Source: Anniella stebbinsi (Eukaryota > Chordata > Lepidosauria > Squamata > Anniellidae). Taken from it: a DNA stretch of 64,000 bases. The translations under genes and the position numbers were made by a program. Positions within the stretch are counted from its first letter, which is position 1, and each line of letters opens with the position of its first letter. The notes beneath the pieces were generated by a model. That model was given only the letters and a program-made list of their open reading frames with translations, made no database searches and was not told where the DNA came from. Below, piece after piece: positions 14,537 to 51,582 of the stretch. The stretch spans positions 162,093,814 to 162,157,813 of the forward strand of contig JARDYH010000005.1 in the NCBI GenBank assembly GCA_029215795.1. The letters are read 5' to 3'.

Positions 14537-14544
14537 CTTGACAG

Positions 14545-14864
14545 TAGGTTGACCATATGAAAAGGAGGACAGGGCTCATGTAACTTTAACAGTTGTAGAG
14601 AAAAGGGAATTTCAGCCAGTGTCATTTGTATGCAATTAGTTCCTGGTGAAATCCCCTCTTCATCACAACAGTTAAAGTTGCAGGGGCCCTGCCTTCTTTT
14701 GTATATGGTCACTGTAGTATAGTGCCTCCAACTTTAACTGTTGTGATGAAGAGGGAATTTCACCAAGAACTAAGTGCATACAAATGACACTGGCTGAAAT
14801 TCCTTTTTCTCTACAACCATTAAAGTTACATGAGCCCTGTCCTCCTTTTCATATGGTCAGCCTA
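14545..14864. mobile_element. Palindromic hAT-type MITE with 8-bp target duplication
   Basis: A 320-bp inverted repeat: the left arm starts TAGGTTGACCATATG and the right arm ends CATATGGTCAGCCTA, with further long complementarity inward. It is flanked by CTTGACAG (14,537-14,544) and CTCGACAG (14,865-14,872). Unit 2 has the empty site 'cctcgacagccatc' at about 60,905, so the element inserted after the duplication or was precisely lost. An 8-bp duplication is the hAT hallmark. Related copies lie at 15,873, 35,613, 47,456 and 49,452, and a half-copy at 24,196 and 63,744. Confidence 0.85.
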
Positions 14865-15049
14865 CTCGACAGTCATCGCACACTGCAGCTGCCCCCTCCA
14901 CACACTCATGCAGCACCTGTTGAGAAGGAACAGGCCAGGTAAGCAAGGCTTAAGTGAGCCAGCTAACCGGCACTATATTAACCCTCTCCTTGCCCAGAAG
15001 GGCTCCTATCCCCTCCCTTTTAAAGGGAGCAGGTTGCTGCATGAAAATA

Positions 15050-15086
<37 letters not shown>

Positions 15087-15215
15087 TTGTAAACTGGCAG
15101 CAGAGAACAGCCGGGGAAAGTGAGTGGAGAGAGAGATGCAGATCACTGAGATGAGAGAGAGGGAGGGAGGGAGGGAGGGAGAAAATTGAGTGAGAGGAGA
15201 GAATGGGCCCTAGAT

Positions 15216-16655
15216 TAGGGTGACCAGATAAAATCCAGGTCAGGGCTCATGTAACTTTAACAGTTGTAGAGAAAAGGGAATTTCAGCCAGAGTCATTTGT
15301 ATGCAATTACTTCCTGGTAAAAGTCCCTCTTCATCACAACAGTTAAAGGTGCAGGCACTATACTAGAGTGACCATATACAAAGGAAGGCAGGGCCCCTGC
15401 AACTTTAACTGTTGTGCTGAAGAGGGAATTTCACCAGGAATAGGGTGACCAGATGACCAGAAACCCCCGGACAAGTCCGGAAAATGACAGAAAAACAGGA
15501 ATCCGGGCGGAAATCCTCGTTTCAGCCACCAAATCCGGAAAATTTGCCACCCCGCCCTTTTCCCAGGATGTGGCATCTCAGCCTGCTCCACCAAGGCAGT
15601 AGAATGGGGTGGTAGAAAGTGGATTGTGCCACTTCTGATTACAGGTGGGAGATCATATTTTTGAATAGTTCCCTATGTTAAGCTTGTGCATACACTCACA
15701 GCTCCCTCCAAATCTAAAACTATCATAGCAGGGAGCAGGCTGAACTAGAAAAGTTCTCTGTGCTTTTCTTTTCTACTAGCAGGATTGTTGCTGTTTTTAT
15801 GGAGGGCAGCCTGCAGTGGTAAAGGGCATCCTACCAGGGTTCCACCCCTTCATTCTGCTTCATGCATAGAGATAGGGTGACCAGATAAAATCCAGGTCAG
15901 GGCTCATGTAACTTTAACAGTTGTAGAGCAAAGGGAATTTCAGCCAGTGTCATTTTGTATCCAATTAGTTCCTGGTGAAATTCCCTCTTCATCACAACAG
16001 TTAAAGTTGCAGGGGCCCTGCCTTCTTTTGTATATGGTCACTCTAGTATAGTGCCTGCACCTTTAACTGTTGTGATGAAGAGGGAATATCACCAGGAACT
16101 AATTGCATACAAATGACACTGGCTGAAATTCCCTTTTCTCTACAACTGTTAAAGTTACATGAACCCTGACCTGGATTTTATCTGGTCACCCTAATAGAGA
16201 GCTTTTCTGTAATTACGTGGAATGATATGGCAGATTGAACTGGTAGAATCTTTCACTGTTCCACTATTTTGTCATGTTCCCCTACATTACAAAAAGAAAA
16301 AGATAGCAGTTTCCCTGGTGTGCTAGTGTTTTACATGCAGGAAGATGGTTGTGGTTGTTGTTGTTGTTGTTGCCTTGGATGAGTATGTGGGTGGGTAATA
16401 TATTTTTAATGCTATTTTATTTTTTACCTTGGGGTGTGTGTGCATGTCTGTGTGTAGATTTATTATATTGATGAACGTTATTGGGTGGGTGTGGATTATT
16501 ATTATTATTATTATTTTGCCTTTGGTGTGTGTGGGGGGAGTTTTTTAAATTGTCTTGGAGAGGATGTGGCTTTTTTCCACTTTGGGTGAGTGTGCAGGGG
16601 GGTGGATTTAATTTTTTTATTGCCTGTGGTAAGCATGTGTGAGGTGTGTATGTGT

Positions 16656-16697
<42 letters not shown>

Positions 16698-18284
16698 TTA
16701 CCTTGGGTGTGTGTATGTGTAAATGAGTTTTTATTTTTGCCTTAGGTAGGTGGATTCCCCACCATCAACAGCACCATTGGTTTGTTTCTATAATAAAAAA
16801 ATGTGGCTCCAAAACTGCTTTTATGCTGATGCAGATGTTGATTATTATTATTACTACATGCAAGGGGGTACATGCTCTCACAACTTTCAGCTCAGTTCCA
16901 AACATTGCTTTTCTGTATGGCTTTGAGATTATGATTATTTTACAGTGTGGCTTTCTGGATTTCCCCCCTCCCTCAACCTGGTGAAATGTTAACAGTTAAA
17001 ATTGCAGAAGCCCTGATCTCTCTTATGTACCTGATCATGTTGAGAATTGTCCTGTCCCAGCAAGATAATATGTGAGTGCATAGTGTGGCTTGTCTTGTCT
17101 GAGTGTGTCTGGATCTCCTAGGTTCTGAAATCATCTTTCTGCAGGTTGCATGATCCAGGAGGCCAGGCTCTGGTGATTGCATAGTTCTCCTTCACAGGAC
17201 GGGCTTGCACTTGTTAGAGAAAGGTGAACAGATGTGAAGAGGCTGCAATTCTATATTCATTTCTCTGAAAGGAAGTTTTATTGAAATCAAAGGGACTTGT
17301 TTCTGAGGTTTCTTTGGGCAGGTTTGTTTTTTTTGGGGGGGGGGGTCCCTGATTGGATTTCTGTTTTCTGCACACTGAGGCAATGTAAATTCAGGAAACT
17401 TTTGGATAAAAGGGGGGAAAGATCCTTGTCTATCATTGTGATAATGGGCATCTGTTCTGGCCTTTCTTTGTATCACTACTGACCATGGTCTTGTTCACAT
17501 GGCTAATGAACCAGAGATATGACACATTTTTAGATTAGTTTCTCACTGATAAACCAGAAGTTGAAACAAGCTAAGAGGTGCTAGTGAGAAATAACTGCTA
17601 CAAACCTTTAGTCCATTTTTTTCCATGGCTGTTTGCAGGGTAATAATATTTTATACTCTTTCTGAATGCTAGATTGCTAGTTTGTTGTACTAGATTTTCC
17701 TGTACTAGATTTTGCTGCACTTGTCAAGTGCTTCATATGTTCAGTGCGGAATCTGTGAGTATGGATATGAGAAAGGTGATGGGGAAAGAATGTTAAATGT
17801 TAGGAAAGGTGAGACTATGGTCCTCCAGTGAAGGATTTGCAGTCAGAAAAGATATTTGAGGGAAAGGGAGACTGTATGACACGAAGTATAGCAAAAGCTT
17901 TAAAGTACAGCAAAAGCTACAAAAGTAGGAGTGAAGTTAATTTCAGATACATTGAACGTCTCAGTGATTTTAACATTAAGATGTTATTTAGAACAGGTTT
18001 GTCTTAATAGTATGCTGTGAAATCAGACATGTGACCAAGGCCACCTTTGGGTGGCATGTCCCTTTGGGGGCCGGCCATGTTGGTGGACACACACCCTTGG
18101 GGGCCGGCCATGTTGGTGGGCACGCCCCCTTGGGGCAGCAATGTTGTCCTCCTTTTTGGTTTCCAAAATATGGTCACCCTAACCAGGAACTAAGTGCATA
18201 CAAATGACACTGGCCAAAATTTCCTTATCTCTACAATTGTTCAAGTTACATGAGCCCTGACCTGGATTTTATCTGGTCAGCCCA
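15216..18284. mobile_element. 3.1-kb composite hAT-type insertion, present only in unit 1
   Basis: It starts TAGGGTGACCAGATAAAATC, ends in the inverse form, and is flanked by the perfect 8-bp repeat CCCTAGAT (15,208-15,215 and 18,285-18,292). Unit 2 has a single CCCTAGAT at the empty site (about 61,220). Inside are several MITE ends, a complete nested MITE (15,873-16,193), (TTATTA)-type microsatellites around 16,500 and 16,660, and a second copy of the 8,461-10,599 transposon relic at 16,973-18,180. No transposase frame was found, so any movement needed another element's enzyme. Confidence 0.8.
15873..16193. mobile_element. Palindromic hAT-type MITE nested in the composite
   Basis: Ends TAGGGTGACCAGATAAAATC and its complement are flanked by ATAGAGA on both sides (15,866-15,872 and 16,194-16,200). 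The interior is the same 'taactttaacagttgtagag' sequence as the MITE at 14,545. Non-coding. Confidence 0.8.
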
Positions 18285-35009: not shown

Positions 35010-36100
35010 GTGTGAAGATGTTGAGAAAGCTAGAAGAGATGCCCAGGGCCATTGCATGACTACACATCTCAGGTCACATGGTTTAATTTATTTACTTACT
35101 CATTTATTTATTAAGTATTTATGTATGCATGTCGATTCTGACTTTCTTAAAACATCACAAAACATTGTAGGAAGAAGAACATATCAATGACAACAAATTT
35201 AAAAATATATGGCATTGAAATGATAGGACAAAACAGTGAAATACAGCTATGATCCAAGGCAAGTTGAAAACAATTACAGTGTTTGCAGTGTAATTATACT
35301 CACATAGGAGAAGACAATCCAGAAGGACTTTTGTTTCTGGCAAATACAGCCATCATCCCCAAGCATCCTGTTTGATTATGTGGGATGAAAGGCCAACTCA
35401 GTCTTGCCAGAGGAAAGGACCCATGTTGAAATCACGGAAGGGCTAGCCTCCATCTTGCTGCTGAAATCACCAGGCTTCTTGCTTGCCAGAGGAAGGTGCC
35501 ATCGGTGGATGCCTTGCCTCAGCTAGTCAAGGCTCCCTGTTTTCCTTCCTCTTCACTGAGACCAGGAGCTGCAACCCATGCTAGTTGCTGTCTGCAGGAA
35601 AGGGCTTATGACTAGGATGAACCTTTGGAAAGGAGGACAGGGCTCCTGTACCTTTAACAGTTGAATAGAAAGGTTAATTTCAGCAGGTCTCATTAGTAAG
35701 CATGCTGCACCTGGTGAAATTCCCTCTTCATCACAACAGTTAAAGCTGCAGGAGCCCTGCCTAGCATGACCATAACCCTAACCATAACCCTATTCTTGAT
35801 AGTTGATAGTGTGAATTTGCACACCTACGAATAATTGCCAGAGGGGAAAATTATGAACACATTTGTGCAATTTCCCAGAACCCCCCCCCCCAATAAATCA
35901 GGGGTCAGGAAGCAAGTGAAGGCCCCTCCAAGGTGTCATTTCGGCATCATTGGTGGGAGAGTCACTGGGGAGAGAGGGGACTGAGGTTGCTGGGGGGGGG
36001 ATGATCAGGAAGAGCAGCAGGGATTTGTGTCACTCGTTTTGAACAAAACTGGGTTGTCACTTTGTTTGTTACCACCAAATCAGCAATTTTCTGTATGGCC
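35010..36100. other. Mostly unassigned interval with one MITE relic
   Basis: Contains a diverged MITE of the 14,545 family at about 35,613-35,772 and an otherwise featureless sequence. CCCTAA-like units at 35,770-35,800 are too few to be telomeric. Confidence 0.45.
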
Positions 36101-40190: not shown

Positions 40191-41701
40191 TAGGGGTGTG
40201 CATGGACCCCCCGGATCGGATCGGGACCTGGATCGGGACTCCAATTTTGTCAAGGATCGGTTCGGACAAAATCGGAGGCCCCCCGGACCGGATCGAGTCC
40301 GATCCCGATCCAAAAATCAGAAATTTTTGGATCGGCTGCCATTTTTTTCCCCATACACTTGCATTGCAATGCAAGTCTATGAGGAAAAAATGGCGGCGGG
40401 TGGGTGAGGGGGGCCTAACTCCCTCCCTCCCCCCCTGGGGCCATCTGCTGTGGATGGCCCCAGCAGGTAAGCCCCCTCCCCCGTGCTCCCTCCCCCCCCG
40501 GGGCTGTCCGCTTCCATCTGCTGGCGCCCGTGGGCGCCAGCAGATGGAAGCGGACGGCCCCGGGGGGGTAAGCCCCCTCCCCCCACCCCCTGCTTACCTT
40601 CCAGGCATGTCCACTTCTGTCCGGCGCCGGCCGCTACTGTGAGCGGGCTTCACGGCCTGCTCCCGGGTGGCGCGCCGGGTGATGACGTCACCCGGCGCGC
40701 CACCCTGGAGCAGGCCGCAAAGCCCACTCGCAGTAGTGGCCGGCGCCGGACAGGAGCGGACGTGCCTGGAAGGTAAGCAGGGGGTGTGGAGAGGGGAGGA
40801 GGGGGGCGCGCGTGGCGGGCTTACCTTCCAGGCACGTCTGCTCCCGTCCGGCGCCGGCCACTACTGCGAGCGGGCTTTGCGGCCTGCTTCCGGGTGGCGC
40901 GCCAGGTGACGTCATCACCCGGCGCGCCACCCGGGAGCAGGCGGTGAAGCCCGCTCGCAGTAGCGGCCAGCGCCGGATGGGAGCGGGCATCCCGGAAAGG
41001 TAAGGGCCCCCCTCCTCCCCTCCGCGTGCCCCCTCCTCCCCTCTGCGCGCCCCCTCCTTACCTTTCCGGGACACCCGCTCCCGTCCGGCGCCGGCGGCTA
41101 CTGCCAGCAGGCTTTGCGGCCCGTTCTAGAGTGGCACGCCGGGTGATGTCATCACCCGGCGCGCCACCCAGGAGCAGGCCGTGAAGCCCGCTCGCAGTAG
41201 CGGCCAGCGCCGGATGGGAGCGGGCATCCCGGAAAGGTAAGGGCCCCCCTCCTCCCCTCCGCGTGCCCTCTCCTCCCCTCTGCGCGCCCCCTCCTTACCT
41301 TTCCGGGACACCCGCTCCCGTCCGGCGCCGGCGGCTTCTGCCAGCAGGCTTTGCGGCCCACTCTAGAGTGGCACGCCGGGTGATGTCATCACCCGGCACG
41401 CCACCCGGGAGCAGGCCATGAAGCCCGGGAGCAGTAGCCGCCGGCGCTGGACGGGAGCGGACGTGCCTGGAAGGTAACCCCGCTTCGCGCGCCCCCCTCC
41501 TCCCCTCCCCCCACTAGGGAAGCCCCCCCTCCCGCTGTCGACTTCCATTGGCGGGCGCCAGCGGGCGCCCGCCGATCTGCTGGTCCATCCGAACCGGATC
41601 GGAACCTTTTCGGTTCGGTTCGGTTCGGATTGGATCGGCCGATCCAGCGGGGAGATCGGAAATCGGATCGTGGATCGGGTCCGATCCAATGCACATCCCT
41701 A
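40191..41701. mobile_element. 1.5-kb GC-rich hAT-type element made of serial palindromes
   Basis: Ends TAGGGGTGTGCATGG and CCAATGCACATCCCTA are inverse, flanked by perfect 8-bp ATTATTAT (40,183-40,190 and 41,702-41,709). Subterminal tracts are GATCGG-rich. The core has four GC-rich inverted repeats (about 40,605-40,775, 40,820-41,010, 41,060-41,240 and 41,310-41,480), each centred on a TGACGTCA- or TGATGTCATCA-type palindrome between CCGGCGCGCC-like arms. No transposase is encoded, and overlapping open frames on both strands are compositional. Confidence 0.85.
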
Positions 41702-43090: not shown

Positions 43091-43220
43091 AATTTACAGT
43101 AAATATATCGCTGTTTAAGCTGTTATTTACAATCTTCCAAAAGGCTGCCATGTCTTTTGTCTTCATAGCTGTGTCCAAACTATGCTAGAGATGTCTTTGC
43201 AATATCATTTTCTTATTTCT
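43091..43220 (-). pseudogene. LINE ORF2 fragment, far side of the Harbinger insertion
   Basis: Encodes RNKKMILQRHL, then a stop, then KDMAAFWKIVNNSL. This matches the linker ahead of the RT domain in the plus-strand copy of the same family (IRRKK... SASFWKLV at about 52,075-52,170). It is the continuation of the minus-strand LINE at 51,364-51,582 and was separated from it by the Harbinger element. Joining the two sides gives a continuous frame over the TCT target. Confidence 0.8.
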
Positions 43221-43235
43221 GGCTCCCTCCACAAG
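43221..43235 (+). repeat. Left TIR of the Harbinger element
   Basis: GGCTCCCTCCACAAG, preceded by the TCT target repeat. The adjoining 43,240-43,370 is rich in GCGC/GCGCAT words that recur at the right end. Confidence 0.85.
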
Positions 43236-43746
43236 GATTCGCTTTTGCGCCCGGTTAGGCGATTATGCGCACTATCGCTGAGGCGCATTTACGCCTAATC
43301 CCTCTGCACGAGAGGCAGCGAGAGGCGGTGAAGCGCATTATCCCTTTTCTCGGACGCGCGTTTTAATTGTTCACTTGCGGGGCTTCGGGAGGAGGAAACA
43401 GAAATTTTAATTCGCTTTTTACCTAAAGCCAACCCCTTTACCAGCCCTCCCTTCCTTTACTCCACCGACAGGTATGTACCTGCCTGCCTACGTAATTTCG
43501 GGTTGCCTGGCAATGAGATGGGAGGGGAGAGGGCAGTGCTGAGCGGGGGGGGGGAAATGCCTTTAGGTTACGCGCACCTTCGTGCGAGACCATATGCATA
43601 CAAGCACGTGATCAGAGTTTCGTCGACCGTTGAGTTCATTTACCTAGGCGACACCAGAGAAGCAAGTTCCTTTTTTCTCTTTCAGTTTGGTTCCCCTTTT
43701 CTCTTTCTGAAACGCCATTTTGAGCTGGACGGGAAGAGAAGGCGAG

Positions 43747-45221
43747 ATGGCTCCTACCTCGATTTCTCGTTCCCTAGTTTATGCGATTCAACTTATGATC
43801 GCAAATATGCATGTTACATTGACTTGCCTAAGGAGAACGATTCAACGGAGAAGAAGAAGACGAATCATCATGAGAAGGCTCCAAGAGAACAACTCATATC
43901 GTTTAAGGCTCCAAGCGAGGCTCCAAGAGAATTTATTATATGTTCCTTTGATGAAACAACGGAGACCAAGAAGATGGTGGTACTTCCCCAGGAGTTGTGA
44001 CTGGTGGGAAAACGATGTTCTAGCCCTCTGGGGTGATGAGCAGTGGCTAGAGAACTTTAGGATGACCAGAGCAACCCTTTTCAAGATTGCAGACCATCTT
44101 CGGCCATTTCTTGAACGTCGCACTACGAACATGAGGGAAGCCATTCCAATGGTGAAGCGCGTGGCCATCTGTATATGGAGGCTAGCAAATCCTGGTGGTT
44201 ACCGGGTGGTGGCTCAGCAATTTGGGATCGGTAGAACAACGGCAGCAATGATCATTGTGGAGGTCTGCCTAGCCATGGAGCATGCGCTTCTGAGACAAAC
44301 TGTTTGCCTTGGCAATGTTCCAGAGGTGAGTCTTTTTTATTATTATTTGGGATAGGAAAAGATTGGCTAGGCTATCATATGATTTGCTGAAGTACAGCTG
44401 TTATATAGGTGGCCTAATGGAACTTGATCATTGTATCTCAAGCATGCCAGCCGATGAAGCAATAATGATTTATTTTCCATTATTTATGTTTTCTCTCTCA
44501 GATCATGAGTGGATTTTCCAAACTGGGCTTCTTTCATTGTGTTGCAGCCACAGATGGATGTCACATTGAAATTGCCTGTCCTCCTAGGCAAGGGGCTGAC
44601 TACATAAACCGGAAACGCTTTTTTTCCATGCTCCTTCAAGGCACAGTGGACCACCGTGTGCGATTCATGGATGTGGAAATAGGTTGGAGTGGGAGAAATC
44701 ACGATGCCCATGTCTTCAGGAACTCTGCACTCTTTGAGGCCATGGAAGCTGGTGTCTTCATCCCAGGGACCCCTACCATTACTGTTAATGACGTGCAGAT
44801 TCCTCCACTGGTGGTGGCTGATTCCGCTTACCCCATTCGGAAGTGGCTGATGAAACCTTACGGTGGAGCCCTGGACCAGCAAAAGCAACATTTCAACCAC
44901 TGTCTGTCACGGGCGAGGAATGTTGTTGAATGTGCCTTTGGAAGGTTAAAAGCGCGGTGGAGATGCCTGTCATCCAGGATAGAACTCGCTGAAGAAAACA
45001 TCATTTCAGTGATATCTGCCTGTGTCATTCTACACAACATTTGTGAAAGTGAAGGACATGATGTTGTATTGGATCTCCCAGAAGCAAGGCAAATTGAACT
45101 GGCAACCCTGGGTGCCCCGCTGCCAATGGCGCATGAGGAAATTCAAGAAAAGGCAGCTGGGGAAAAGGTCAGAGATGCCTTAAGAGGCATGCTTTGGTCT
45201 CTGCGCGGGCAGAACCCCTAG
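43747..45221 (+). CDS. HARBI1-like DDE transposase, two exons, apparently intact
   Basis: Exons 43,747-44,325 and 44,502-45,221 are joined by a phase-0 intron (CCAGAG|GTGAGT ... CTCTCAG|ATC) and give about 432 residues. The start ATG (GCGAGATGG) is in good context; an upstream ATG at 43,720 is possible. The N-terminus is very basic (CLRRTIQRRRRRRIIMRR), followed by a helical region with DEQWLENFRMTRATLFKI and a helix-turn-helix-like GYRVVAQQFGIGRTTAAMI. The catalytic triad is visible: Asp211 in AATDGCHIEI, Asp300 in VADSAYP and Glu336 in VVECAFGRLKARW, with D-x35-E spacing. The DDE_Tnp_4 ending CVILHNICESEGHD follows. The enzyme excises and inserts transposon ends in the nucleus, usually with a Myb-like partner; two candidate partners lie downstream. 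No stop or frameshift is seen. Confidence 0.9.
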
Positions 45222-46337
45222 GGAGGTGAGTGTTCAGTGCCAAAACCCTGTGCCAAAGTTGTGTAAGCCATGTTTTCCCTAACTTTACTCTATTTACTCT
45301 ATTTCAGCAAGTCACAGGAAGGAACCATGTGTCAAGACCTGGTAGAAGCATAAACAAATAAGGAAAGTTTCCGCATAAAGGCTTCATGGCCTGAGAATGA
45401 ATGAATGAATGAATGAATGTGTAGAGGGTGGGATATTGTTATTACATCCTATGCTAAAACAATCCATCTCTAAATTTCCCTTAGAACATAGCATTGAGAG
45501 AACTGCAGGGGATCAAAGACGGTGCTGTGTGGAACCTCTGTGATGTGCCCAGACCAGAAGGCAACCGCTTCCTTTTTCTGGATCATTCATTCTTCAAGCA
45601 AAAGCCAAGTCCCGCTCCAGGCAGCACTGACTGTGTTTTTTCTTTGTTCATCAAGAAGAAGCAGCATTAGTAAATGAGACTACTGATAGACAATCCCTTT
45701 AGAATATGTTAATTTTATGTTCTTTGCTGATTTTTCTTTTACATTGCTGTTAGTAATTAGATATTGTTTTGAGATGTTCATAATAATGTGACTTTCAACT
45801 ATGTTTCTTTCAATGTCAAATTAAATGCTGTTGTAAATGCTGTTTGCTGTTAATTTTATTTTCTATGCTGAAATTGTTGTTGCCATATTAAAAATGCTTA
45901 TTTTAAAAATGCTTATCCTAAATAAAATATGTTCCTACAACTTTCAAACAATGTTGATAGTAGTATTCCTAGACATTAAGACTTCAGGTAACCCAACACA
46001 CATATGCAGTACAGTGAACATTGCAGAAGGGCAAGTAACAGGACCACAGCCCATGCCTACCTCACAGGGTTGTTTTTTTGAGAATAACATAGTACAATCT
46101 AGTCAATAACATTCTCATGTTTTCAGTTCAGGACACCCAAAGGTACATTCAGGACACCCAAAACACATCTGGTAACTTTCCCACTGCTACGAACAAACGC
46201 GACAGTGTTTAATCACTTACACGCTGTTCGGGAATGGTGGTTTGACGGTTGCGCGCACATGCGCGCAACCGCTAAACCGGTCCACGGAAACATTGCAAAG
46301 CGGAAGTGAGGCCTAGACTTCCTCACAATCCTTCAAA
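45222..46337. other. Spacer between transposase and first Myb gene
   Basis: Contains an (AATG)n run near 45,395-45,418 and an AATAAA at 45,921-45,926 that could serve the transposase transcript. Around 46,230-46,265 there is a perfect short palindrome 'ttgcgcgcacatgcgcgcaa', the likely promoter-side boundary of the next gene. No coding sequence recognised. Confidence 0.45.
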
Positions 46338-47889
46338 ATGCCAAGAGGGAGGTATTGGAGTGATGCGGAGGTCCGCTTATTGTTGGCCTTCCTGCTCCAT
46401 TCCTCCCTCGTGGGAAGGATTGTCAGGAGTAGCAGCCTCCCCACTATGAGGCTGTTTAGGAGGGCGGCTGCTGCTCTCCAAATGAATGGATTTGTCCGCA
46501 CTGCCCTGCAGTGTCGGACAAAATTTAAATATGTGAAGGCCAGCTTTTATTAGGCCATTACTGGCCATGGAGAACATCCCCCCTTTCGCCTGCGGCCCCC
46601 GTACTTCAATGAATTCAGGGAGCTGTGGCGGAAGGTGGGGAGACCAACCCCCCAGGAGAGGCTGACTGCAGGTGAGTGAGTGCATTAGGATTCTGCCCAC
46701 TGCTCATTGAGTATTCTCTGGTGGATGTGCAGGTTGGGGGGGGGGAATGCCCCAAAAACTATGACCCCTCACACAATGAGGCTTTAAGGTGGATTTCAGC
46801 ATTCATCTTGGGGTGGGACTAGATGCCCTTCAGGGACACCTTCCACATTTTAATGTTATTTCCCTTTTTCCCTCTTTTTCTTAGCACAAAACAGGATGGC
46901 GGAGGAGGCAGCGCCTTCTCCAGAATTGGAGGAGGTTGGGGGGACTTCTCCTCCTCCTTCTCCTCCTCCTTCTCTTCCGGCATCACCTCCAAGGAGGACC
47001 CTCCACAGAAGGGCACGTAAGTTAAATGCAAGCCAGATTAATTAGGAATACTATTTTTGCCCAGCGTACTTTAATAATATTATTAATATTAATAATTGTA
47101 ATGATATATGTATTTATTTATTTAGTAATTAACCGACTCTCCCAACGGATCGAGGCGGGGAACACCATGATAGAAACTTAAAATAAAAAAATGATTAAAA
47201 GCGCATACCAAAAATTCAGAAGAGAAGCCCCTGAAATCAAAGATCATTTGCTCTTGGCTTAACTATACATTTTTTTTTTCCAATTTTGAAGGGATACTCA
47301 GTCCATCGCCGTCTCCGTCTGCAGAGGAGGTGGAGGAGGAGGTGGAGGAAGAGGAGGAAGAGGATAATCCACCCCCACCTGTATCACCTGCTGCTGTGTC
47401 TCCAGCAGGTAATAGAACTTCCATTGCTTTGTATTATGTAGAGTACATTGAGCATATAAAATCCAGGTGAGGGCTCATGTAACTTTAACCGTTGTAGAGC
47501 AAAGGGAATTTCAGCCAGTGTCATTTGTATGCAATTAGCTCCTGATGAAATTCCCTCTTCATCACAACAGTTAAACCGACCTGGATTTTATGTGGTCACC
47601 CTATTGTACAGTACAGGACTAATGGTTTAAATTTTTAATTAAAAAAAGAAAAACTATATTTACATTCCTGTAAATTGAATCGCATTGAATAGCCAATGTC
47701 ATTGAGTGGTACATCTTGAACTGTTTTTCTGTTGGTTATATGATTTAAAACACATTTTTTTTCTTACCATCCCATGCAGTTCCCACTCAGGAGGAGCGGC
47801 TGGAAACGCTTGAGACAGCCGTGGGAGGCATGCAGCGTCGCATGTCCTCCATTGAGCAAAAGTTGGACCTGATCCTACAAAAATTGTAA
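46338..47889 (+). pseudogene. Myb/SANT-like (trihelix) gene 1 of the Harbinger element, four exons, one in-frame TAG
   Basis: Exons 46,338-46,671, 46,885-47,016, 47,292-47,408 and 47,780-47,889 are all joined in phase 1 at consensus GT/AG sites, giving about 230 codons. The N-terminal domain begins MPRGRYWSDAEVRLLLAFL and has LQCRTKFKYVKASFY, then TAG (46,551-46,553), then AITGHGEHPPF and FNEFRELWRKVGR, a Myb/SANT trihelix-type DNA-binding domain. Exons 2 and 3 encode a Pro/Ser-rich and a Glu-rich linker. The last exon is a short coiled coil (EERLETLETAVGGMQRRMSS, IEQKLDLILQKL). The single TAG is the only defect, so decay is recent or the codon is read through. Proposed role, by family, is binding transposon ends or ferrying the transposase. 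Confidence 0.8.
47456..47604. mobile_element. MITE fragment in intron 3 of Myb gene 1
   Basis: Carries 'ctcatgtaactttaacc', 'gaatttcagccagtgtcat' and an end GGTCACCCTA, as in the 14,545 family. The left TIR is lost. Non-coding and spliced out in the model. Confidence 0.7.
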
Positions 47890-48065
47890 ATATTGTAAAT
47901 AAGATATGTTAAAAAAAAGTAAATCTTTATTTTTGTTACTAAAACATTGTTTTGGTTTTCCTTAGCATTTTCAGGTTGGTGCAGTATTAAGGAGGGATGC
48001 CTAACTGTTTTAATAATAGATAGGAAGCACAGTCCCAACCAAACAGTGACATATGAAAACTATAT

Positions 48066-48330
48066 TTTAATGGTTAAATACAACATAAATAACAGCAAAA
48101 AATAACATAATTAACAGCAAAAAATAACATAATTAACAGCAAAAAATAACATAATTAACAGCAAAAAATAACATAATTAACAGCAAATAACAATAACATA
48201 ATTAACAGCAAATAACAATAACATAATTAACAGCAAATAACAATAACATAATTAACAGCAAAAAATAACATAATAAACAGCAAATAACAACAGTATTAAC
48301 ATGATATTAACAGTAACATAAATGTCCCAA
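48066..48330. repeat. Tandem array, 21-22-bp unit, at the 3' end of Myb gene 2
   Basis: About eleven copies of 'aacagcaaaaaataacataa' with minor variants. It lies between the convergent ends of the two Myb genes. Confidence 0.9.
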
Positions 48331-49240
48331 AAAAACATGTATCCTAAGGTGAGAACTTTAAGGGTTTTTTTACCTCCCTTGCCGTGCGCTTTATGCTTGG
48401 CTCACCTTGAACTGGTGATGATGAGCGCTGTGGGGGTACTGTATGGGAGCACGGGAGCAGTGATTCGTCCAAGTCTTTGGTTAAAATGTCATTCTGTGGA
48501 TTTACTGTCTGCAGGGTATTTTGCAACTGGGCAGACCTAGGACAAGTGCCCACTAACTGGGGTTGTTGCACCCTGACTTTACCTTTCTTCTTAGCCATGC
48601 ATTTTCTCCCCTCACCCTCTCCTGAGTTCCGACCTAAGTCATTTGGCTTAGAGCTGGTCCCCTCCATACTGTCAATAGCCAACCATCTTTTTATTGGCTG
48701 GCATTTTCCATGGCTAGTTGATGATGGGTTGGCTGTATGGGTTGATCTTCCCGGTTCTTCCTGTTGCACCACCGTAACAAGCTTCTCCATCGTGACACAT
48801 TGTCTTTCTAGAATTCTGAGAAAGGCATCTTGATTTCTTTGGTCCCTTGCATCTTCTGTTTTCAAATATTCCAACATCTGGTCATTTCTCTGCAACATCT
48901 GCTCATGCATCTGCTCATGCATCTGCAAGAGGTTTGCGTTGTGTGCAGAGGCATGCTCCAGAATGCGGTCTGTGTCCCTGCTGCGTGGGGGTCTTCTGTT
49001 TCTGGCCATTTCCAGGCGGGTTGCAGGCGAGAGTGCTGCCTTTGGGATAGGATGGCACCTTCCTTCATCTGTACCTGAAGGGAAAGGGCAAAGTTTAGTG
49101 TGTTTAAAAATCATTTATTACATGTCCAGCCTGTCCCATGGGTTCTCTCACACCCTCATCCTGAAGATGAGAATGTCCTTTCACACATTTATAAGAATTG
49201 CAGGACTGAAACTTTATCAAGCAAATAACATCGGCTGTAC

Positions 49241-49440
49241 TTACTCGGTGCTGCTGCAGGATGCTGGAGATTTCTGGCCCTCACATCTGCGTGCTCACTG
49301 GATTCCGACGCACTGGTGGTACTGCTGCTTCTGTAGGCTGCCGTGGAAGAAAAAGAAGAGCTATTAGGAGGTTTCATTCCAATAGGCACAATCACAAACC
49401 TCCATTTTAAATAGGGGGGTTGTTTGTTTGTTCAAAATGG
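49241..49440 (-). repeat. Duplicated exon block, copy A (exon 4)
   Basis: About 200 bp nearly identical to 49,843-50,041, covering the 93-nt exon, its acceptor side and intron sequence to 'caaaatggctgcctgcc'. Confidence 0.85.
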
Positions 49441-49451
49441 CTGCCTGCCTA

Positions 49452-49690
49452 GGCTGACCACATGAAAAGGAGGTCAGGGCTCATGTAACTTTAACTGCTG
49501 TAGAGAAAATGGAATTTCAGCCAGTGTCATTTGTATGCATGCAGCACCTGGTGAAATTCCCTCTTCATCACCACAGTTAAAGTTGCAGGCAGTATACTAC
49601 AGTGACCATATACAAAAGAGGGCAGGGCTGACCACATGAAAAGGAGGTCAGGGCTCATGTAACTTTAACAGCTGTAGAGAAAAAGGCTGT
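49452..49690. mobile_element. MITE pieces between the duplicated exons
   Basis: Two partial copies of the 14,545-type MITE ('ggctgaccacatgaaaagga' at about 49,454 and again at 49,627) sit between the duplicated exon blocks. Confidence 0.65.
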
Positions 49691-49842
49691 AATCCCTCCC
49701 ATAGACCACAATTTCTTGTCCCATGCACCACAATGTTGTGTCCAATGGCCCCCTTTCCCCCTTCCCCCTCCATAAACCCAGCCTAGATCATTGGGAACTC
49801 CCTTCCTTCCATGATCTCTGACCCCAGAAATTAGCCCTGTAC

Positions 49843-50041
49843 TTACTCGGTGCTGCTGCAGGATGCTGGAGATTTCTGGCCCTCACATCTGCGTGCTCAC
49901 TGGATTCCGACGCACTGGTGGTACTGCTGCTTCTGTAGGCTGCCATGGCAGAAAAAGAAGAGCTTTTAGGAGGTTTCATCAATAGGCACAATCACAAACC
50001 TCCCTCCATTTTAAATGGGGGTGGTTGTTCAAAATGGCTGC
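49843..50041 (-). repeat. Duplicated exon block, copy B (exon 3)
   Basis: Second copy of the 200-bp block. Its 93-nt exon (49,939-49,847) matches that of copy A, with intact splice sites in both. Confidence 0.85.
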
Positions 50042-51348
50042 CTGCCCTTATCCTTTTCCCCCCCGCCCTGGAGAGACCAGAGAAATGCTGGCTAGCTAGA
50101 GGAGATGTCTCCTGCCCTCTCCTGCCACCCGCTCACCCGCATCTGCCTGCCCCATTTTAGAATACAATTTTTTATCCCATGGAACACAATAGTAAGTGGT
50201 AAAGTTAAGAGTCTTCCCAACCCAACAAAAGAAACAGTATATACCTTCAGGTTCTTCGTTTCCAATATCTTCTGGTGTCTCGAAATCTAAAAGGGGAAAA
50301 CATCAGATGTGAGCTAAAGGCATGAAATAGAAGGAAGAACGAGATTTTTTTAAAAATGGCGATTACAATCAATGTACCTCCGGGAGAGTAGGGCGTTCCA
50401 AGGTAGTCCTCCACATCTATTGTTTGAAGTCCACTGCTGAACAGTTCTTCTGAGCCTTCTGAGAGCGGGAACACCAGGGGGGAACTTACTGGGGGAGCAG
50501 CAGGTGCTTGGACACGATGGATGTTCAGACTCCTGCCCACGCGATTTGGTTGAATAGTAGCATCCCCCCGAAAAATGCTATGAAGCTCCTCAAAAAAGGG
50601 GCAGGTGGCAGCATCATTCCCTGATCGTGAATTATGATTCACGACCCTGCGATATTCCTGCCTCATTGCCTTTGCCTTGGTCCTGCACTCCTTCGCAGAA
50701 CGGATATGTCCCCTTCTTTGCATTTCCTGAGCAATGGATTCATAGGCATCAAGGTTCCTATGGCTGGCATTCAGTTGAGCTTGAACTTTCTACTCCCCAA
50801 AAATGTCCAGAAGGTCGAGGATCTCTGCCTTTTTCCAAGAAACTCCCCTTCCTGGAGCAGCCATTTCGGTAGGTGGAAAAGGTGTGTAACTGGAGGAAAT
50901 AACTCAAGATGCTGACTCTCTGGCGTCGCGAAGGTAAATGAGGTCAATGGTCGGATCACGCGCCTATATGCATAGGCACGCGACCACACCTGCGCCTCCA
51001 GCAAAACCGTTGGGTGAACACACCCGCGCGGCTGCGCATAACCCGAGGGCCTTTTTTCAAATCCCTTCCTTCTCCCGGAAATCCCCTTCCCTCTCCCCGC
51101 CCATCTCATCAAAACCCGCCCTCTACCTGCCCACTACCTGCTCACACCTCTCCGAAAATGCGCTTCACTGAAAAACTGTTCACATGGGCATAACGCGCTT
51201 TACATCCCGCCGCAAAATAAAACTCGCTATTTAACGCGCATTCAATAATGCGCATAATCAGAGAGATAACGCCCCTCTACACCCGTTTTGCGCTCCATTC
51301 TTGTAGAGGTAAAATTTATAATGAGCCTTCAAAGAGCATTAAACCTCT

Positions 51349-51363
51349 CTTGTAGAGGCACCC
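51349..51363 (-). repeat. Right TIR of the Harbinger element
   Basis: On the minus strand GGGTGCCTCTACAAG, followed on the plus strand by the TCT target repeat. An imperfect inner repeat of 'cttgtagagg' sits at 51,299-51,309. Confidence 0.85.
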
Positions 51364-51582
51364 TCTGATTAGTTCCCTATATTCCTTTTTCTTATTTACG
51401 AATATCTCAGTTATTTCGGGGGAATAGTCAGACTTCATTTTTCTAGCATATCTTCTTACTGCTGATCGAGCCTTTCTGCAGTCCAGGTCAAACCTACCTT
51501 ATTGAGATTGGCTAGAAAGTGCTCTAAATGTTCCTCTAGTCAAATTAGGCTTTTAATTTCTCATTATGTGCTGATACAAGTG
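51364..51582 (-). pseudogene. LINE ORF2 fragment between the Harbinger and the opposite-strand LINE
   Basis: Encodes FDLDCRKARSAVRRYARKM and KKKEYRELIR, matching QWFDMECKTRKH and KKSYKKLIRR of the plus-strand copy. It continues upstream (in reading direction) at 54,333 and downstream at 43,220. The last 68 bp (51,515-51,582) are repeated at 54,333-54,400. Confidence 0.8.

What the first reader, a model, noticed from the sequence alone, without database searches (positions are those of the whole stretch)
43221..51363. Three-gene Harbinger transposon: one transposase and two distinct Myb/SANT partners
Seen: 15-bp TIRs, TCT target duplication, a transposase with D, D and E intact, and two separate trihelix-type genes in convergent orientation. 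Known: described Harbinger elements have a transposase plus one Myb-like protein that recruits it. Inference: a second DNA-binding partner may recognise a different end or regulate the first. The second Myb gene is not a recent copy of the first, so it was acquired or duplicated long ago.
Basis: partly seen in the sequence, partly recalled or inferred. Interest (0 to 1): 0.85.

Follow-up and report, generated by a model that had tools for sequence, protein, structure and literature searches.

The report
Harbinger transposon with two Myb genes
A family of jumping genes in this vertebrate (probably reptile) genome carries a transposase plus two different DNA-binding partner genes, where the surveys we could read describe one partner, and one of the two varies unusually much between copies.

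Summary
Window 43221-51363 is a PIF/Harbinger-type element with imperfect 15-bp TIRs, a TCT duplication, a two-exon DDE transposase and two distantly related trihelix (Myb_DNA-bind_4) genes in convergent orientation. The three-gene layout is usual. Of 20 loci fetched by transposase similarity alone, 19 have Myb1 exon 1 and 15 have Myb2 exon 1 inside the fetched stretch, with a sixteenth just beyond it. 10 of 15 independent insertions with both ends read have a matching 3-bp duplication. One element of an older family (DNA mostly 70-80% alike) has the same three genes inside one TIR pair with a TAA duplication. All three genes show purifying selection. So neither Myb was carried in by a recent separate insertion. 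Unexpected: Myb1 exons are more variable between copies than its introns or the other two genes, and look mosaic. What the second Myb does is inferred, not shown. New variant of a known kind.

The parts
43218..43220 (.). target site duplication TCT (left)
43221..51363 (.). three-gene PIF/Harbinger-type element
   Evidence: TIRs, TSD and copies elsewhere with the same ends
43221..43235 (+). left TIR
43747..44325 (+). transposase exon 1
   Evidence: open frame, GTGAGT donor; open in 15 of 20 fetched copies
44502..45221 (+). transposase exon 2 with DDE catalytic domain
   Evidence: DDE_Tnp_4 6e-35; open in 19 of 20 copies
46338..46671 (+). Myb1 exon 1, trihelix DNA-binding domain; TAG at 46551-46553 in this copy
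   Evidence: Myb_DNA-bind_4; frame open in 18 of the 19 other copies that have it (one of the 18 lacks the ATG); hypervariable
46885..47016 (+). Myb1 exon 2 (predicted)
   Evidence: splice signals and open frame across copies
47292..47408 (+). Myb1 exon 3, acidic linker (predicted)
47780..47889 (+). Myb1 exon 4, short coiled-coil-like C-terminus (predicted, coiled coil judged by eye)
   Evidence: hypervariable
48082..48301 (.). 22-bp minisatellite between the 3' ends of the two Myb genes
48344..49074 (-). Myb2 last exon (predicted start)
   Evidence: present in 18 of 20 copies, open in 15 of those 18
49245..49337 (-). Myb2 duplicated linker exon, copy 2 (predicted, phase-symmetric)
   Evidence: 143-bp direct repeat 98% identical; varying number of copies between elements; splice sites read by eye
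49847..49939 (-). Myb2 duplicated linker exon, copy 1 (predicted)
50245..50286 (-). Myb2 exon 2 (predicted)
50378..50864 (-). Myb2 exon 1, trihelix domain; TAG at 50792-50790 in this copy
   Evidence: Myb_DNA-bind_4 2.4e-18 in an open copy; GT-1 match; open in 14 of 14 complete other copies
43265..43338 (.). left subterminal ATGCGC/GCGCAT sites (43265, 43283, 43333)
   Evidence: 8 sites in both ends against a mean of 0.67 in shuffles, p 0.002; motif picked from the k-mer list, so p is optimistic
51034..51255 (.). right subterminal ATGCGC/GCGCAT sites (51034, 51158, 51236, 51248, 51250)
43624..43660 (+). 37-bp block upstream of the transposase, repeated inverted upstream of Myb2 at 50917-50953 (84%); no good match before Myb1 (best E 0.13)
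51349..51363 (-). right TIR
51364..51366 (.). target site duplication TCT (right)

Best explanation
This is one damaged copy of a high-copy PIF/Harbinger-type transposon family whose usual form carries three genes: a DDE transposase and two anciently diverged trihelix/Myb partners. Shown by sequence: the three genes sit inside one TIR pair, in the same order and orientation, in many copies of this family and in one read element of a much older family, and all three are kept by purifying selection. So both Mybs are working parts of the element rather than passengers. Inferred: Myb2, whose upstream region mirrors the transposase end and whose DNA-binding domain is conserved, is the ordinary Harbinger recruiter that binds subterminal GCGCAT sites and brings in the transposase. 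Myb1 is a second, fast-changing DNA-binding factor (trihelix, acidic linker, coiled coil) that tunes element-specific recognition or expression. Confidence in the architecture is about 0.93; in this division of labour about 0.35. The figure below is for the whole.
For: Of 20 loci chosen by transposase similarity only, Myb1 exon 1 in 19, Myb2 last exon in 18, Myb2 exon 1 in 15 plus one beyond the stretch. Two members of a young group, 99% alike over most of their length, have the layout as far as fetched, that is to Myb2 exon 2. In the capped hit lists 12 of 13 Myb1-Myb2 neighbours within 12 kb are convergent and 15 of 16 transposase-Myb2 neighbours (overlaps the fetched loci). 10 of 15 independent insertions have matching 3-bp duplications. 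L055/L056: a 9.4-kb relative with transposase, Myb1 and Myb2 between TIRs and TAA duplications. Omega within the family: 0.52, 0.39 (transposase exons), 0.23 (Myb1 exon 1), 0.24 and 0.59 (Myb2); between one copy and L055 0.29, 0.25, 0.20, 0.60. Block shared upstream of transposase and Myb2; GCGCAT array at the ends.
Against: Nothing here shows binding, expression or transposition. Only one enriched motif family was seen at the ends, which does not call for two binders. Myb1 does not covary with the ends more than other segments do. Two omegas have upper limits near 1 (transposase exon 1 0.29-0.97, Myb2 last exon 0.36-1.04). Four of 20 loci (L009, L019, L024, L025) lack Myb2 exon 1 in the stretch read; L024 lacks both Mybs. 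One of 13 and one of 16 neighbour pairs are in the wrong orientation. Frameshifted copies were dropped before the omegas. The older family rests on one whole, decayed element; three other insertions of it show only the convergent Myb1-Myb2 pair by coordinates. A weak 13-bp inverted match brackets Myb1 in the window (reached by 1 of 50 shuffles; 11 bp in L010; the matching motif not seen in L055), so an ancient entry of Myb1 between the other two genes is not excluded.
Confidence: 0.6

Rival explanations
1. Composite: an ordinary two-gene Harbinger into which a second element carrying Myb1 (or Myb2) recently inserted; the three-gene appearance is local.
For: Short foreign repeats are nested in introns of both Myb genes; L009 shows that related Myb copies can pile up; a weak inverted match (13 bp exact; 18-29 bp at 79-89%) brackets Myb1 in the window.
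Against: Same three genes in the same order in many independent copies and in an element of a second, old family with its own TIRs and TSD. The bracketing match is AT-rich, lies in a minisatellite on one side, weakens in L010 and that motif was not found in L055.
Confidence: 0.03
2. Redundant or obligate pair: Myb1 and Myb2 do the same job, for example as a heterodimer that bridges the transposase to the GCGCAT sites, without specialisation.
For: Both have a trihelix domain at the N-terminus; one enriched motif family at the ends.
Against: Very different rates of change and 21% identity.
Confidence: 0.25
3. Myb1 is a regulator, for instance an anti-silencing or repressor factor acting on element promoters, in the manner of VANDAL-encoded anti-silencing proteins of plants, and is not needed for transposition itself.
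For: Its upstream region lacks the block shared by transposase and Myb2; rapid change of the DNA-binding domain would suit an escape race. The VANDAL parallel is known here only from one citing sentence and a reference title and from recall.
Against: No direct evidence; no covariation with the ends.
Confidence: 0.2
4. The hypervariability of Myb1 exons is a mutational or gene-conversion effect without selection on the protein.
For: Synonymous sites are raised as well (pS 0.26 against 0.03-0.07 in the other genes); 42% of informative site pairs are incompatible; short haplotype blocks are shuffled between copies; at least 12 diverged Myb1 relatives exist as possible donors. The 167 bp before Myb1 are mildly raised too (0.061).
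Against: Introns lying between the exons are not raised; the synonymous excess is larger within the family than between families (pS 0.55 against about 0.30), so a higher mutation rate alone does not fit. The distance-dependent recombination test was not significant for Myb1 (p 0.06; 0.046 for the Myb2 last exon).
Confidence: 0.45

Closest known systems
PIF/Harbinger group of the PHIS superfamily (PMC4482050, passages read; PMC9710019, passages)
   Same: DDE_Tnp_4 transposase, short TIRs, 3-bp duplications, a trihelix/Myb partner gene
   Different: Two Myb genes instead of one; 8.1-9.4 kb against a mean near 4.1 kb for candidate autonomous elements; duplications not strictly TWA
Nuwa I/II groups of PHIS (PMC4482050, passages)
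   Same: DDE transposase plus Myb/SANT protein; two of our duplications lie in C-TNA-G
   Different: Duplications seen here are mixed; two Mybs. Placement between Harbinger and Nuwa not resolved; no transposase tree was built
Harbinger-Snek of sea kraits (PMC8437027, abstract and section 9 part 1 read)
   Same: High-copy Harbinger of a squamate, with one-gene derivatives
   Different: One transposase and one Myb-like protein; not compared by sequence here
PHISTA TET+ Harbinger relatives in fungi (PMC12730594, passages)
   Same: Harbinger relatives with three genes
   Different: The extra genes are a TET/JBP dioxygenase and a protein without a Myb domain
Squamate MSANTD7/ZSCAN29-like and KRAB-Myb proteins P0001-P0011
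   Same: 34-43% identity to Myb2 over the trihelix domain and part of the linker
   Different: Annotated as host proteins, two with a KRAB box; whether host-derived or element-derived was not tested

Membership tests
PIF/Harbinger (PHIS) | DDE transposase of the DDE_Tnp_4 kind with intact catalytic residues | tested here: met
   residues assigned by eye
PIF/Harbinger (PHIS) | terminal inverted repeats | tested here: met
   imperfect, 12 of 15 bp in the window; similar ends in copies
PIF/Harbinger (PHIS) | 3-bp target duplication | tested here: met
   10 of 15 insertions match, plus L055 TAA
PIF/Harbinger (PHIS) | duplication is TWA | tested here: inconclusive
   TAA, TAA, TTA fit; TCT, AGG, AAA, AAT, CTA, CAT, TCA do not (3 of 10); L055 TAA fits
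PIF/Harbinger (PHIS) | second gene encoding a Myb/SANT protein | tested here: met
   two such genes
PIF/Harbinger (PHIS) | two ORFs | tested here: not met
   three genes; the survey says most candidate autonomous elements have two, so this is a usual, not a strict, feature and is not held to exclude membership of the superfamily
PIF/Harbinger (PHIS) | Myb protein binds subterminal sites and brings the transposase into the nucleus | not testable with these tools
   only a candidate GCGCAT array
Nuwa II | C-TNA-G target | tested here: inconclusive
   CTTAG and CTAAG at two insertions, others differ
Nuwa I | CWG duplication | tested here: not met
   0 of 10

The most novel reading that the evidence does not exclude
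The element has split the Harbinger partner role in two: a conserved recruiter (Myb2) and a diversifying specificity factor (Myb1) whose DNA-recognition half and coiled coil are reshuffled between copies by exchange among families, so that each lineage tells its own DNA from that of MITEs and rival elements, or escapes host silencing.
Probability: 0.22. Interest if true: 0.82.

Novelty: new variant of a known kind. Interest (0 to 1): 0.6.

Why it matters
Harbinger transposition is unusual in needing a DNA-binding partner, and how the transposase finds its own ends is not settled. A lineage that stably keeps two distinct partners, one conserved and one hypervariable, gives a natural experiment for which partner sets end recognition and which does something else. 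It also bears on where vertebrate Myb/SANT genes, including KRAB-Myb fusions in squamates, come from.

Tried and rejected
Recent nested insertion: rejected on copies and on the second family. Covariation of Myb1 with the element ends: Mantel r 0.38 with the left end, lower than transposase exon 1 with that end (0.71); 0.50 with the right end on 7 copies, where Myb2's last exon has 0.70. Positive selection on Myb1 as a whole: omega 0.23, so not supported at gene level; one 10-codon window has pN near pS (codons 41-50: 0.175 and 0.200). The first attempt at right-end divergence used wrong extractions and was discarded; one search replaced it. One search's Myb2 splice trial and one search's Myb2 last-exon figure (omega 1.07) used a wrong frame; one search replaces the latter. 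Myb1 homologues in 5.8 billion proteins: none at E 0.001 with one sequence or at 0.1 with six. AlphaFold model of the Myb1 domain: mean pLDDT 49.5, too weak to search with. NCBIfam gave only weak IS5- and IS982-family matches to the transposase and none to the Mybs. The transposase had no solved relative worth the name (best E 0.4). MITE census by TIR pattern: not completed. Genome search with the older family's transposase and Myb1: not completed.
Full report
What is there. Window 43221-51363 is bounded by imperfect 15-bp TIRs and by TCT on both sides. The transposase has two exons (43747-44325, 44502-45221) and hits DDE_Tnp_4 at 6e-35. Myb1 (+, from 46338, four predicted exons) and Myb2 (-, from 50864, five predicted exons here) both hit Myb_DNA-bind_4; Myb2 also hits plant GT-1, a trihelix structure (E 0.004). 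The two Mybs are 21% identical. All exon boundaries are predicted from splice signals and open frames, not from RNA.

In this copy Myb1 stops at codon 72 and Myb2 at codon 25, both TAG. Neither stop occurs in the other copies in which the position was read (Myb1 also in L037 and L038); the same positions are R (or W/G) and Q there. The window copy is therefore a damaged member, though its transposase is open.

Is the three-gene form real? The genome holding the window (G000, 1.89 Gb, unnamed) was searched with transposase exon 2 alone: 40 matches scored of 294 candidates, 98-100% identical. Myb1 exon 1 is in 19 of 20, the Myb2 last exon in 18 of 20, Myb2 exon 1 in 15 of 20 plus L012 by coordinates. 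L024 has no Myb in the stretch, and L009, L019 and L025 lack Myb2 exon 1 in the stretch read. Judged by shared left flanks the 20 loci are 14 independent insertions: L013-L017 and L027 share one, L018 and L023 another. In the Myb1 search 31 of 40 scored matches have one and the same score, a young group; two of it, L037 and L038, 99% alike over most of their length, have the layout as far as fetched, to Myb2 exon 2. Hit lists for the three genes fall together in the expected orientation: 12 of 13 Myb1-Myb2 neighbours, 15 of 16 transposase-Myb2 neighbours and 8 of 8 transposase-Myb1 neighbours within 12 kb, from 40 transposase, 79 Myb1 and 67 Myb2 places. These overlap the fetched loci, include duplicates, and come from lists capped at 40 per search.

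Target duplications. Of 15 independent insertions with both ends read, 10 have matching 3 bp: TCT, AGG, AAA, AAT, CTA, CAT, TTA, TAA, TAA, TCA; five do not (L010, the L013 group, L020, and the elements at C5:170.2 Mb and C4:16.2 Mb). One further element (C2:268.2 Mb) was dropped because its left end was not found. Chance agreement would be about 1 in 64 each.

An older relative. L009 and the stretch after it hold extra Myb1 relatives, one of them (about 72% identical) followed by a Myb2-like last exon. A genome search with that Myb1 gave, besides itself, 12 places at 77-84%; the rest of the 40 scored lie at 75-76%, the distance of the window's family. One, L055/L056, was read: transposase (67-88% identical by pieces), Myb1 (57-60%) and Myb2 (83% in exon 1, 46-91% in pieces of the last exon) in the same order and orientation, between a left and a right end of the same type, with TAA on both sides, 9.4 kb; DNA pieces are mostly 70-80% alike. 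It is itself decayed (stops and a frameshift). Three further insertions with Myb2 at 93-94% to L055 have the convergent Myb1-Myb2 pair by coordinates (C2:175.2, C5:163.4, C4:114.8 Mb). So the pair was together before the families split. Whether Myb1 entered between the other two genes still earlier is open: a weak inverted match brackets Myb1 in the window (13 bp exact, reached by 1 of 50 shuffles), shrinks to 11 bp in L010, and in L055 the best match is another 14-bp word.

Selection. Within the family, counted by Nei-Gojobori with frameshifted copies dropped and L038 left out as near-identical to L037: transposase exon 1 0.52 (13 copies, CI 0.29-0.97), exon 2 0.39 (16, 0.21-0.75), Myb1 exon 1 0.23 (15, 0.15-0.34), Myb2 exon 1 0.24 (10, 0.13-0.42), Myb2 last exon 0.59 (13, 0.36-1.04). 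Between one copy of this family (L010; L011 for the last exon) and L055: 0.29, 0.25, 0.20 and 0.60. All three genes have been kept for function.

The surprise. Over 43221-49100, divergence is mostly 0.01-0.06 but 0.09-0.15 at Myb1 exon 1, 0.08-0.10 at its last exon, 0.09-0.11 over the first 400 bp and 0.07-0.09 in the minisatellite. In segment alignments the left end has 0.071, the right end 0.073 (7 copies), Myb2 exon 1 0.028 and Myb2 last exon 0.035. Myb1 by exon: 0.119, 0.079, 0.053, 0.121, against introns 0.035, 0.032, 0.041 and 0.061 in the 167 bp upstream; exon 3 is thus only slightly raised. Columns with shared polymorphism: 134 of 679 in Myb1 exons, 59 of 769 in its introns (Fisher 1e-11), 47 of 446 before Myb1, 48 of 701 in the Myb2 last exon, 40 of 1299 in transposase exons (neighbouring sites are linked, so the p-value overstates). 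The raised variation survives removal of CpG columns (0.10 against about 0.03-0.04). The peaks in exon 1 lie at 46475-46624, the half of the trihelix domain that should include the DNA-reading helix (recalled from the GT-1 fold; my own model was too weak). Copies share short haplotype blocks in different combinations, and 42% of informative site pairs are incompatible against 9-22% in the two Myb2 exons and transposase exon 2; transposase exon 1 also gives 42%, but from 16 sites. Incompatibility does not depend clearly on distance (p 0.06), so recurrent change is not excluded. Synonymous sites are raised too, so this is not simply protein-level positive selection. Between the families the synonymous excess of Myb1 is smaller (pS 0.55 against about 0.30), which argues against a higher mutation rate alone and for retained or imported old variants. 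Copies were chosen by transposase similarity, which lowers transposase divergence and, by linkage, its neighbours, but should not raise Myb1 exons above their own introns.

How it may work. Known for Harbinger3_DR, as told in PMC9710019 (passages): the Myb-like protein binds a 9-bp subterminal motif and is needed for the two proteins to come together in the nucleus. Here ATGCGC/GCGCAT occurs 8 times in the two subterminal regions against 0.67 in shuffles, p 0.002; the motif was picked from the k-mer list, so the p-value is optimistic. The regions before the transposase and before Myb2 share blocks in inverted orientation (37 bp at 84%, 24 bp at 92%); the region before Myb1 has no good match to either (best E 0.13). 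I infer that Myb2 and the transposase form the ordinary pair and that Myb1 is the added, changeable factor. I looked for covariation between Myb1 and the ends and found none beyond the background.

Novelty. Passages read here describe two ORFs for most candidate autonomous elements of the PHIS groups surveyed, 380 families in all, Spy having one (PMC4482050), and third genes without a Myb domain in fungal relatives (PMC12730594). Searches on a second Myb, three ORFs and related terms with Harbinger or PIF (listings) showed no paper that by title, start of abstract or the passages read describes two Mybs in one element. Repbase was not available and most subscription papers are not held, so an existing entry cannot be excluded. 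Hence: a new variant of a known kind. Closest proteins to Myb2 are 11 squamate proteins at 34-43% (only the 7993 candidates sharing most words scored), two of them with a KRAB box; Myb1 had none in two searches. The host is therefore probably a squamate; it was not named.

Noticed in passing
window 47449-47575, 49450-49628, 49626-49686; also 14543-16193, 18182-18283, 35609-35752: A short repeat of up to about 180 bp, with inverted-repeat character, sits in introns of both Myb genes and recurs as a cluster elsewhere in the window: a separate MITE-like family.
   Followed up: partly
window 49235-49377 and 49837-49979: A Myb2 linker exon lies in a roughly 600-bp tandem duplication; other copies of the element carry different numbers of this unit, and the predicted exon is phase-symmetric, so linker length may vary between copies.
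   Followed up: partly
window 40586-41460: 237-bp GC-rich tandem repeat, 3.8 copies.
   Followed up: no
G000 C5:181.7-182.07 Mb (L013-L017, L027): Six very similar elements with the same left flank, on both strands: probably repeated segmental duplication of one insertion rather than transposition.
   Followed up: no
L018 just beyond its right end: A short piece with the same kind of terminal motifs lies directly against the element end, next to the AAA duplication.
   Followed up: no
P0001, P0011: Squamate proteins that join a KRAB box to a Myb_DNA-bind_4 domain, 37-38% identical to Myb2: possible host capture of a transposon Myb, or the reverse (P0001 domains confirmed).
   Followed up: partly
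L009 5808-6685 and 8705-9917, continuing in L054: Extra Myb1 relatives (one truncated, one about 72% identical) and a Myb2-like last exon follow a partial element, showing layers of related insertions.
   Followed up: partly
window 45832-45860 and 48170-48198 (and other minisatellite units): Weak AT-rich inverted match between the stretch after the transposase and the minisatellite, bracketing Myb1.
   Followed up: partly
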